Shown piece by piece: positions 15,561-18,571 of a stretch of DNA of 20,509 nucleotides (its first letter is position 1; each line of letters begins with the position of its first letter). The stretch covers positions 1 through 20,509 of IMG/VR virus record IMGVR_UViG_3300042987_002457. One strand, written 5' to 3'. The stretch comes from a virus. The notes under the pieces were generated by a model, which saw only the letters and a list, made by a program, of their open reading frames with translations, searched no databases and had not been told where the DNA came from. The position numbers and the translations under genes were made by a program.

Positions 15561-15575
15561 CGGTCGACGGCATCG

Positions 15576-15626
15576 ACCACCATCGAACATCTGTTCGTCG
15601 AACGGGTGTTCGGTGGTGGTCTTTTT
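15576..15626 (+). terminator. Intrinsic terminator of the plus-strand island
   Basis: Arms ACCACCATCGAACA (15576-15589) and TGTTCGGTGGTGGT (15607-15620) pair over 14 positions with one U-G pair. The loop itself folds (CTGTTC/GAACGG around GTC), giving one long hairpin. CTTTTT follows at once (15621-15626). This is a textbook Rho-independent terminator reading rightward and isolates the island operon from the recombinase-like gene. Confidence 0.85.
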
Positions 15627-15698
15627 GCATTCTCGAGCCAGCGCAGCTGGAGCACCGGCACCCCACGAAAAACCCCAAAAGCCCTGAGTGTGGGCAAT

Positions 15699-15743
15699 TT
15701 TGGCGTGCGATTCGACCGAAAAATTTGGCGTGCGATTCGACCG
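15699..15743. repeat. Twin 20-bp direct repeats before the recombinase-like gene
   Basis: TTTGGCGTGCGATTCGACCG occurs twice without mismatch, at 15699-15718 and 15724-15743, with a 25-bp period and AAAAA between. They end 48 bases before the ATG. Exact direct repeats at about two and a half helical turns look like binding sites for a protein: arm-type recombinase sites, an operator, or short iterons. Confidence 0.8.
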
Positions 15744-15776: not shown

Positions 15777-15790
15777 GATAATTTCTGTTT
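15777..15790 (+). promoter_or_regulatory. -10 element suggesting leaderless transcription
   Basis: GATAAT (15777-15782) lies 8 bases before ATG 15791, with no ribosome site between. A start about 7 bases after a -10 box would fall on or next to the A of the ATG, as in the leaderless mRNAs common in actinobacteria. No -35 is evident. Upstream, GCGCT/AGCGC (15754-15758, 15763-15767) forms a small hairpin overlapping the TCGATGCGCTG motif (15749-15759) shared with the island leaders. Confidence 0.45.
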
Positions 15791-16711
15791 ATGGCGACTG
15801 TAAGGTCCGTGACGGCACGTTTCTTGGGTTCTCAACCCTCTGTCCATACTCGGCGTCGCTACAAGAAAGACATTGTCACATGGCAACGGTGGTGCCACTC
15901 TCATGGCGTGCATGCGCTCGACGGGTCGGCGTTGAACGCTCAGCTTTTCTCGGAGTGGCTCGAGATGCAGTACACGTCGTCGTCGGTGCTGTCGAGGTAT
16001 TCGGGGGTGACGCGCTGGTTTGATGCGTTGTTAGCCGAGGGTGTCATCAAAGGGCACGGGTTCCGCAATGTGAAGTTGCCGAAGCGGGTGCGATCCATGT
16101 CTCGGGTCGTGATCCCGACGGAGTCGGAGTTGGGTTTGCTGATGGATGCGGCGGCGAAGAAGGGGCCGCGTTGGGAGTGGGTCGCCGGGATGGTGGCCTA
16201 TGGCGGGCTGGATGTGGCCGAGGCGATGCGAGTTCGGTCGACGGACATTCGTACTTGGGAGGGGCGTACGCTTGTGAAGGTGGTGTCGCGGCGTGGAAAT
16301 CGGCGCGAGGTGCCGGTCGATGGGCGTCTCGAGGTTGTGACGTTGGGGTTGGCGGCTGTGTTTGCTCCGACTTCACCGATGGGGCCGTCGCTGACTGGGA
16401 AGTATGTGGCGGAGGCGTTGGGGGTGTTGGCTCGAGAAGCGTGTGGCCGTCCAATCACGGTGCAAGACCTACGCCGCTATGCGGTGAAACGGCAGGCGGA
16501 GCGCGGTGTCCCGATTCCGGTGATCGCCAAGTGGCTGGGCCATACGACCGACCTGTGGGTCCGTCAGACTTTAGGGATGCTGAATCCGGTGGCCGAGGTC
16601 AGTCAGGCTGATGTTGTGGAAATGATTCTCGTCGAGCCTGATGGCGGGCGGTTTGGCTCCGGCTCCGCGCCAGATTCGCTTCTAGATGGTGTTCAGCCGC
16701 AATCCGCCTGA
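15791..16711 (+). CDS. Tyrosine-recombinase-like protein with degenerate active site
   Basis: A 306-residue protein with the two domains of phage integrases. Residues about 15-100 are the SAM-like core-binding domain (VHTRRRYKKDIVTWQRWC, SRYSGVTRWFDALLAEGVI). Residues about 108-275 follow the catalytic fold, but compared with XerD: Arg I (TGLR) is D141 in GGLDVAEAM; the Lys position has RRGNRR; the His of HxLR is Q225 (QDLRR) while R228 is kept; H251 in LGH is kept; and the Tyr position (H+9/H+10) holds T260-L261. Four of six catalytic sites are thus changed, and strand transfer is not expected. The frame is open throughout, with no sign of decay. A retained DNA-binding role is inferred. Its 3' end overlaps the opposite RHH gene by 113 bases. 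Confidence 0.8.
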   Translation: MATVRSVTARFLGSQPSVHTRRRYKKDIVTWQRWCHSHGVHALDGSALNAQLFSEWLEMQYTSSSVLSRYSGVTRWFDALLAEGVIKGHGFRNVKLPKRVRSMSRVVIPTESELGLLMDAAAKKGPRWEWVAGMVAYGGLDVAEAMRVRSTDIRTWEGRTLVKVVSRRGNRREVPVDGRLEVVTLGLAAVFAPTSPMGPSLTGKYVAEALGVLAREACGRPITVQDLRRYAVKRQAERGVPIPVIAKWLGHTTDLWVRQTLGMLNPVAEVSQADVVEMILVEPDGGRFGSGSAPDSLLDGVQPQSA

Positions 16712-16859
16712 GCGTCTCGGACGGCGGCTGGTTGGCCTGCGTGTAGGTCAGGAGTGCTCGAGCGGCTTCGGTCTTGCTGCACCCGACGACTGTTGCTGTC
16801 GTGGTCAGCCATCCGTCCAGCGCGGGGTCAAGGTCAATGTTGATTCGGTTGCGGGTCAC
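16599..16859 (-). CDS. Ribbon-helix-helix-like DNA-binding protein
   Basis: An 86-residue protein starting at GTG 16859 (MTRNRINIDLDPALDGWL). RINIDLDPALDGWLTTTATVVGCSKTEAARALLTYTQ fits the beta-strand, helix, turn, helix layout of Arc/MetJ/CopG repressors; the remainder is a basic helical tail (ANLARSRSQTARHQARRES). Such proteins bind DNA as dimers and often regulate their own operon. The start overlaps the membrane gene by 4 bases (GTGA). The 3' third lies opposite the end of the recombinase-like gene, so the two transcripts are convergent. The RHH call is from pattern only. Confidence 0.6.
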   Translation of the reverse strand: MTRNRINIDLDPALDGWLTTTATVVGCSKTEAARALLTYTQANQPPSETLRRIAAEHHLEANLARSRSQTARHQARRESFPQHQPD

Positions 16860-17075: not shown

Positions 17076-17924
17076 TCATGTCAGCAACGGTAGTAGTTGG
17101 CGGGCGATCCATTCGGCTACGGGGCTGGCTACTCCGTTGCCGCACATTTTGTAGCGGGTGCTGTCGCTGTTGGTTTTGCCGTCTGCGCGGTGGAGGGTGT
17201 GGTTGTCGGGCCATCCCATGAGACGCTCGCATTCGAGTGGGGTGAGTCGTCGGACGACCGTGTCGGAGATGACTCCCGTGGACTGTTTGGTCCCTGCACG
17301 AATCGCATGGTGGATGTCGGGGTTGATGGTGTCGTTGTATTCGTCGTAGGCCACGGCTTGTGCGCCTGTTTGGTCGAGGGTGTATGACGGGCCACCTTCG
17401 TCGCCAATGCCAAGTCCATTCTGGCGTTTTTCCATGTCTCGCCCGTCTTGGATTGGGATTGCTACTGCGGGGGGCGACGGGATGCCGAGAGCTGATCCAA
17501 TTTTGACCGGCGGCGATTGACCGTCGGCGTGGACTTTGAATGATCCGCTGGCGTTGGAGTCGAATGCGATTGGTTCATTGGTGGCGATCATGGGGACGTT
17601 GTTTCCTCTTGTGCCCATGCGGCTGAGTAGCGATGGGGTGGTGTCGTCATAGATTCTGGGCGGTTCACCGACGCGTTGCGCGGTGAAGATAACCATGTGG
17701 GGTTCGTTGTCGCCCCGTTTGGATTCGGCTCGAAGTGTTGGCACGATGTTCTCCCATACTCCGCCACCGAGACGGATCATTTGCCCTGGTTGGAATACGA
17801 TGACGGTGGCTCGGCTGTCGCCGGTGTTGTCGAATGCGTTCAATGTTGGTGACACCCCCCCCTGCTGCCAGGTTTCGTAGTCGTCAGGGTGTTGTGCTCG
17901 ACGACGCTTCACGAACCACGTCAT
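17076..17924 (-). CDS. C5 cytosine methyltransferase, C-terminal half (motifs IX-X)
   Basis: A 282-residue protein carrying the target-recognition region and last motifs of a DNA cytosine-5 methyltransferase. Motif IX is RRLTPLECERLMGWPD (225-240) and motif X is STRYKMCGNGVASPVAEWIA (255-274). Residues 22-195 have at least four degenerate units built around SPTLNA, VPTLRA, TPSLLS and SYTLDQ, a variable region that sets specificity. It overlaps the N-terminal half by 4 bases (ATGA), so the two are probably made together and assemble, as in the split enzyme M.AquI. A run of eight G (17855-17862) near its start is a possible slippage site. Role: methylate phage DNA against restriction. Confidence 0.85.
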   Translation of the reverse strand: MTWFVKRRRAQHPDDYETWQQGGVSPTLNAFDNTGDSRATVIVFQPGQMIRLGGGVWENIVPTLRAESKRGDNEPHMVIFTAQRVGEPPRIYDDTTPSLLSRMGTRGNNVPMIATNEPIAFDSNASGSFKVHADGQSPPVKIGSALGIPSPPAVAIPIQDGRDMEKRQNGLGIGDEGGPSYTLDQTGAQAVAYDEYNDTINPDIHHAIRAGTKQSTGVISDTVVRRLTPLECERLMGWPDNHTLHRADGKTNSDSTRYKMCGNGVASPVAEWIARQLLPLLT

Positions 17925-18571
17925 TCAATGCTCTCTCCAGCAAGGGCGGGAGCGCTTTCCCTCTGTTGCTTGACCTTCGCAGAATTCCTTCGGCGGCCCG
18001 TGCCGACAGCAAGTATTTGGTTAGGTCCGACTCGTTGGGCGATTGCAGGATCGAAGACAGAGACGAGGAACACTCGTCGACGCCGTTGGGGGACTCCGAA
18101 GAACTGTGCATCCAGCACATTCCACCATTGCGCCACAGCCCCGATGTCATCCAACGCTGCGAGTACCGCTCCGAAGTCGGCTCCTTGGTTGCTGTTGAGA
18201 GCTCCGGGGACGTTCTCCCAGATGGTGATTCGGGGAAAAGTTCCATTTGTTGCATCGCGCATCTCCTTGAAGATTCGTACTGACTCGAAGAACATGGATG
18301 ATCGGCCACCTTCGATGCCTTTGCGTTTGCCTGCGACTGACAGGTCTTGGCAGGGTGATCCGTAGATGATGGTGTCGACTGGCTCGAGCAGGTCGCCTTT
18401 GACTTCCTGCACGTCGCCGTGGCGTGGTACTTCGGGCCAATGGTGGGCGAGGGTTTGCTGGCAATGGGCATCCCATTCGACTTGCCAACGGCAGTCGTAG
18501 CCTGCTCGGTCGAACCCTAGGTCGAAGCCTCCGACGCCCGAGAATAGGGAGCCGTATGTTGGTTGGGTCAT
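17921..18571 (-). CDS. C5 cytosine methyltransferase, N-terminal half (motifs I-VIII)
   Basis: A 216-residue protein with the AdoMet-binding and catalytic half of a DNA cytosine-5 methyltransferase. Motif I is SLFSGVGGFDLGF (8-20), motif IV GSPCQDLSVAGKRKG (71-85) with the catalytic Cys74, motif VI IWENVPGAL (117-125), and motif VIII FFGVPQRRRRVFLVS (158-171). Motifs IX and X are missing and lie in the next gene. The frame ends cleanly, and its stop overlaps the next ATG. It is therefore a split enzyme or a recent frameshift; the neat 4-base overlap, shared by almost all neighbours, favours a working two-subunit enzyme. It is the last but four of the early operon. Confidence 0.9.
   Translation of the reverse strand: MTQPTYGSLFSGVGGFDLGFDRAGYDCRWQVEWDAHCQQTLAHHWPEVPRHGDVQEVKGDLLEPVDTIIYGSPCQDLSVAGKRKGIEGGRSSMFFESVRIFKEMRDATNGTFPRITIWENVPGALNSNQGADFGAVLAALDDIGAVAQWWNVLDAQFFGVPQRRRRVFLVSVFDPAIAQRVGPNQILAVGTGRRRNSAKVKQQRESAPALAGESIE

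What the first reader, a model, noticed from the sequence alone, without database searches (positions are those of the whole stretch)
15791..16711. Integrase-like protein lacking the catalytic tyrosine and three other active-site residues
Aligned by eye with XerD, the catalytic Arg I is D141, the Lys position falls in RRGNRR without Lys, the His of HxLR is Q225 and the Tyr position is T260/L261. Only R228 and H251 remain. The frame is intact over 306 residues and both domains keep their hydrophobic pattern, which argues against a pseudogene. This suggests a recombinase fold kept for DNA binding, for example as a repressor or as an architectural protein at an origin. It stands at its own promoter with twin repeats in front.
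Basis: partly seen in the sequence, partly recalled or inferred. Interest (0 to 1): 0.72.

Follow-up and report, generated by a model that had tools for sequence, protein, structure and literature searches.

The report
Dead integrase kept by integrase-less phages
A family of aquatic phages, probably infecting actinobacteria, keeps under strong selection a protein that looks like a DNA-cutting integrase but has lost its cutting residues, most likely because it now serves as a DNA-binding regulator, as one Bacillus prophage repressor is known to do.

Summary
The 306-aa protein at 15791-16711 is a two-domain tyrosine-recombinase fold. Arg I is Asp141, the His of HxxR is Gln225, and no Tyr stands at any plausible nucleophile position. 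Arg228 and His251 remain. I found 26 full-length relatives (53-99% identical) and all share these losses. No Tyr in the C-terminal domain is conserved across the family. dN/dS between close pairs is 0.03-0.16, so this is neither a pseudogene nor an assembly artefact. Searches of the relatives' contigs, two of them terminally redundant (probably complete) ~40-kb genomes, found no other tyrosine integrase and no serine integrase. The gene has its own promoter region: an upstream terminator, an 11-bp box (CTGGGTGTGGG) found once per genome, and twin direct repeats whose sequence changes in both copies together between lineages. Best explanation: a former integrase exapted as a sequence-specific DNA-binding regulator that acts at least on its own promoter. 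DNA binding was not tested. The mechanistic precedent is MrpR (YopR), the recombinase-fold repressor of Bacillus prophage SPbeta, but profile comparison puts this family with active actinophage and plasmid integrases, not with MrpR. It is therefore probably an independent case. A role at a replication origin is possible but unsupported.

The parts
15791..16711 (+). Catalytically dead tyrosine-recombinase-fold protein, 306 aa; core-binding domain about residues 1-98, linker 99-110, catalytic-type domain about 111-284, conserved low-confidence C-terminal tail
15575..15621 (+). Intrinsic terminator that closes the upstream unit
15684..15694 (+). Box A, CTGAGTGTGGG in the window (CTGGGTGTGGG in every other relative), at this place in all loci and as an exact match nowhere else in the genomes examined
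15696..15718 (+). Twin direct repeat, copy R1, candidate binding site
15721..15743 (+). Twin direct repeat, copy R2, 25 bp from R1
15777..15782 (+). Putative -10 box GATAAT, 8 nt before the ATG, suggesting a leaderless mRNA (by eye; the sigma-70 consensus scan did not call it)
16599..16859 (-). Small ribbon-helix-helix-like gene (by eye, no Pfam match) convergent with and overlapping the last ~110 nt of the dead-integrase gene; rival binder of the repeats

Best explanation
The gene encodes a phage integrase that lost DNA cleavage in one ancestor of this phage group and was kept as a sequence-specific DNA-binding regulator. Shown here: the protein keeps the two-domain tyrosine-recombinase fold (predicted), lacks the nucleophile, Arg I and His in every relative, evolves under purifying selection, and is encoded as a separate unit behind a terminator with a conserved composite site in front (box A, repeat R1, an A/T block, repeat R2). 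Inferred: the protein binds the ~16-bp repeats, probably one monomer per repeat and cooperatively, and so controls its own promoter. Repeat spacings of 42, 53-54 and 63 bp are near whole helical turns, as looping would need; those of 24-26 bp would place the monomers side by side. Its further targets, and whether it governs the infection programme as MrpR does, are unknown. DNA-binding regulator in general: about 0.75. Own-promoter repeats as its target: about 0.55.
For: Fold. Loss of the same residues in all 26 full-length relatives and no conserved Tyr in the C-terminal domain. dN/dS 0.03-0.16 in close pairs. No other integrase in the relatives' records. Composite site at the same place in all loci. 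Repeat pairs above shuffles in most lineages with both copies changed together. Precedent for the mechanism: MrpR has the recombinase fold, no recombination activity, and represses through a 15-bp element (PMC10516654).
Against: No binding experiment. The repeats have no further copy elsewhere in the window, G002 and G005, so a wider regulon is not visible. The L004/L020 clade shows no significant repeat pair. An RHH-like gene overlaps the 3' end in the lineages with the longest repeats and could be the binder there; WhiB, present in all, is not excluded. The model's pTM is moderate (0.56).
Confidence: 0.6

Rival explanations
1. Architectural or initiator protein at the phage replication origin: the single site (box A, repeats, A/T block) is the origin and the protein acts as an iteron-type Rep that recruits host machinery.
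For: Site is single and beside its gene in every genome; repeats and an A/T-rich block; no polymerase, primase or helicase among the proteins scanned.
Against: No DnaA boxes at the site, no GC-skew switch there; not every ORF was scanned; the A/T richness is what any promoter has.
Confidence: 0.13
2. The repeats belong to the overlapping RHH-like protein (or WhiB), and the dead integrase acts elsewhere, for example on host DNA or on competing integrases.
For: The longest repeat pairs occur in phages that carry the RHH-like gene.
Against: Repeat pairs with the same GCGTGCG core occur in G006, G007 and G010 relatives where the RHH-like gene was not found.
Confidence: 0.17
3. A recombinase with an unusual nucleophile, or a partner subunit of the host's Xer recombinases.
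For: Arg II and His III are invariant.
Against: Arg I, His and Tyr are all gone; T260 is Val in L031 and L032; no conserved Tyr in the domain.
Confidence: 0.04
4. Decaying remnant of an integrase (pseudogene) or assembly artefact.
For: Active-site loss is what first decay would look like, and these phages have no other integrase.
Against: 26 intact full-length relatives from many samples, dN/dS 0.03-0.16, conserved promoter and C-terminal tail motif.
Confidence: 0.01

Closest known systems
MrpR (YopR), master repressor of Bacillus prophage SPbeta (PMC10516654, PDB 8A0A)
   Same: Tyrosine-recombinase fold, catalytic residues lost, phage-encoded; Arg I and His replaced; DNA-binding repressor of a ~15-bp element
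   Different: No convincing sequence kinship (hhalign prob 23, E 9e-4). MrpR keeps Lys and Tyr and lost the His/Trp; this family lost Tyr and keeps His251 and Arg228. MrpR has ten sites in its genome; here only the own promoter was found. SPbeta has an integrase; these phages show none
Phi3T SroF bound to DNA (PDB 9rd5, title only)
   Same: Fold match, TM-score 0.48 on the query
   Different: Known here only from the PDB title; no sequence comparison made with certainty
TnsF, inactivated tyrosine-recombinase target selector of Tn6022 (PMC10293859)
   Same: Dead recombinase domains kept for DNA targeting
   Different: N-terminal zinc fingers, ~500 aa and a Tn7-type transposon context, none of which was seen here
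Tyrosine integrases with intact active-site residues, of Gordonia phages (Kiko gp37, EMsquaredA gp36, Utz gp31) and of plasmids
   Same: Closest sequence relatives outside the family (22-30% identity, full-length profile match E 1.5e-28)
   Different: The Gordonia proteins keep Arg, Lys, His, Arg, His and Tyr

Membership tests
Tyrosine recombinase (active) | Two-domain core-binding plus catalytic fold | tested here: met
   (fold is predicted, not solved)
Tyrosine recombinase (active) | Catalytic Arg I, His, Arg II, His/Trp and Tyr | tested here: not met
   Arg I, His and Tyr absent in all full-length relatives; Arg II and His III present
MrpR family of SPbeta-like phages | Sequence kinship with MrpR homologues | tested here: not met
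   hhalign of A2 with 8 MrpR homologues: prob 23, E 9e-4 over 114 columns, against prob 99.8 with active recombinases
MrpR family of SPbeta-like phages | Recombinase fold with catalysis lost | tested here: met
   By sequence and model only; activity not assayed
MrpR family of SPbeta-like phages | Repeated binding element in several promoters of the genome | tested here: not met
   Repeats found only at the own promoter in the window, G002 and G005 at up to 3-4 mismatches
MrpR-like repressor (by function) | Sequence-specific binding and repression | not testable with these tools
   Needs gel shift and reporter
TnsF target selector | N-terminal zinc-finger region and Tn7-type transposon genes beside it | tested here: not met
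   306 aa with no extra N-terminal domain; phage context
Iteron-type replication initiator | Origin with repeats plus DnaA boxes next to the gene | tested here: inconclusive
   Repeats yes; DnaA boxes no, skew switch no; origin not mapped

The most novel reading that the evidence does not exclude
The dead integrase has become the replication initiator or origin organiser of a phage group in which no polymerase, primase, helicase or integrase was found: an integrase turned into an iteron-type Rep.
Probability: 0.12. Interest if true: 0.8.

Novelty: new variant of a known kind. Interest (0 to 1): 0.52.

Why it matters
MrpR showed that a phage can turn a recombinase into a repressor, and its authors suspected that this is more widespread. 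This family would be an apparently independent instance in phages of probable Acidimicrobiales hosts. It goes further than MrpR in having lost the tyrosine itself, in genomes with no other detected integrase, and it comes with a natural series of co-varying candidate operators that makes the protein-DNA code testable. It also warns that 'integrase' annotations, often used to call a phage temperate, can be wrong.

Tried and rejected
Single-sequence search of PDB sequences: no hit; the profile search gave only weak XerA-like and Int hits. Scan of bacterial and archaeal genomes for relatives or prophages: one 5.2-kb contig in an Acidimicrobiales MAG with a GP88-like gene and a cytosine methyltransferase beside it, that is, a phage fragment. 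Second integrase, tyrosine or serine: none. Origin signs: GC skew and DnaA boxes negative. Y230 or another Tyr as substitute nucleophile: not conserved. Membership in the MrpR family: weak. Rfam: no match. Other copies of the C-terminal tail motif in the phage proteomes: none. A likeness of the -10/ATG region to a dif site was seen by eye and dropped, because the start codon and -10 box alone would give it. SroF is known here only by its PDB title: no paper on it was in the library, and I did not verify which phi3T gene encodes it.

Full report
The window is a 20.5-kb record of an uncultivated tailed phage with SU10-like major capsid protein, P22-like portal, terminase, WhiB, RecT, HNH endonuclease and a cytosine methyltransferase. 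WhiB suggests an actinobacterial host. The only relative in the bacterial genome collection lies on a phage fragment binned in an Acidimicrobiales MAG, which makes that order the best guess for the host, no more.

Observation. The ORF at 15791-16711 (+) encodes 306 aa with the two domains of phage integrases. The AlphaFold2 model, built from 13 family members, has mean pLDDT 82 and pTM 0.56. Foldseek finds XerA, integron integrase, lambda Int, Cre, XerD, Brujita Int and phi3T SroF on DNA. Profile alignment with seven tyrosine recombinases that keep the active site (prob 99.8, E 1.5e-28) puts Asp141 at Arg I, Gln225 at His, Arg228 at Arg II and His251 at the His/Trp. The Tyr position falls on R258, T260 or L264 depending on the alignment. 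None is Tyr in any of 25 aligned sequences, and the only invariant tyrosines are Y24 and Y61 in the N-terminal domain.

Family. Three scans of viral contigs and one of genome contigs gave 27 loci, 26 with a complete C-terminus, 53-99% identical to the window protein. All have D or E for Arg I, Q for His and no Tyr. On a tree with nine outside recombinases the dead family is one clade, and the others keep His, Arg, His and Tyr, so the loss is most simply one old event. dN/dS between close pairs is 0.03-0.16. The gene is maintained, not decaying.

Genomes. Two relatives' records (G003, 39.5 kb; G015, 40.4 kb) have direct terminal repeats of 123 and 127 bp and are probably complete. Searches of 18 relatives' records found no match above cut-off for the integrase family, only the dead gene itself, and nothing for serine recombinases. 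No DNA polymerase, primase or helicase turned up among the proteins scanned, though not every ORF was scanned.

Site in front of the gene. A strong intrinsic terminator (15575-15621) is followed by box A (15684-15694), repeat R1 (15696-15718), repeat R2 (15721-15743), a putative GATAAT -10 and the ATG with no room for a ribosome-binding site, which suggests a leaderless mRNA (by eye). CTGGGTGTGGG stands at this place in every relative (with one mismatch in the window) and as an exact match nowhere else in the genomes examined. Twin direct repeats are significant against shuffles in most lineages, but their sequence differs between lineages while the two copies agree within one. That is what a site co-evolving with a phage-encoded binder would show. 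Spacings are 24-26, 42, 53-54 and 63 bp. The L004/L020 clade lacks a clear second copy. In the window, G002 and G005 no further copies exist in the genome.

Interpretation. Loss of catalysis with the fold, basic residues and promoter site retained points to a DNA-binding regulator, and the only candidate site found is the gene's own promoter. MrpR of SPbeta is a solved precedent for the mechanism: same fold, catalysis lost, repressor on a 15-bp element (PMC10516654). TnsF shows that dead recombinase domains can also be DNA targeters (PMC10293859). The present family is not MrpR: profile comparison is weak (prob 23) and the retained and lost residues differ. I therefore read it as an independent exaptation from active actinophage-type integrases. 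Which genes it controls, and whether these phages have a dormant state at all, is open.

Rivals. The RHH-like protein encoded across the 3' end could own the repeats in phages that have it, but repeat pairs also occur in phages where it was not found. An origin function is conceivable, since the site is single and beside its gene and no replication enzyme was found, but it lacks DnaA boxes and a skew switch. Residual catalysis is very unlikely.

Noticed in passing
16599-16859 (-): Small ribbon-helix-helix-like gene convergent with the dead integrase and overlapping its last ~110 nt; kept in the window, G002, G005, G015 and G017, not found in G003, G006, G007, G010, G012.
   Followed up: partly
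17076-18571 (-): Cytosine methyltransferase is split into two ORFs with a 4-nt overlap in the window but is a single 513-592 aa ORF in G003 and G006.
   Followed up: no
L012 7306-8286 (+), L009 10092-11318 (+): A GP88-family gene (PF17338) stands just upstream of the dead integrase in several relatives but was not found there in the window.
   Followed up: no
L006, L007, L008: Gordonia phages Kiko, EMsquaredA and Dmitri each carry two annotated tyrosine integrases; those aligned (both of Kiko and EMsquaredA) keep His, Arg, His and Tyr.
   Followed up: partly
residues 282-296 of the window protein (16634-16678): A conserved C-terminal tail EPDGxRFGSGxAPDS, low confidence in the model, found in no other ORF of the genomes examined.
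   Followed up: partly
G002, G003, G015 and other ~40-kb relatives: GC skew has nearly one sign around the whole genome on the strand of the dead-integrase gene, although most genes lie on the other strand.
   Followed up: no
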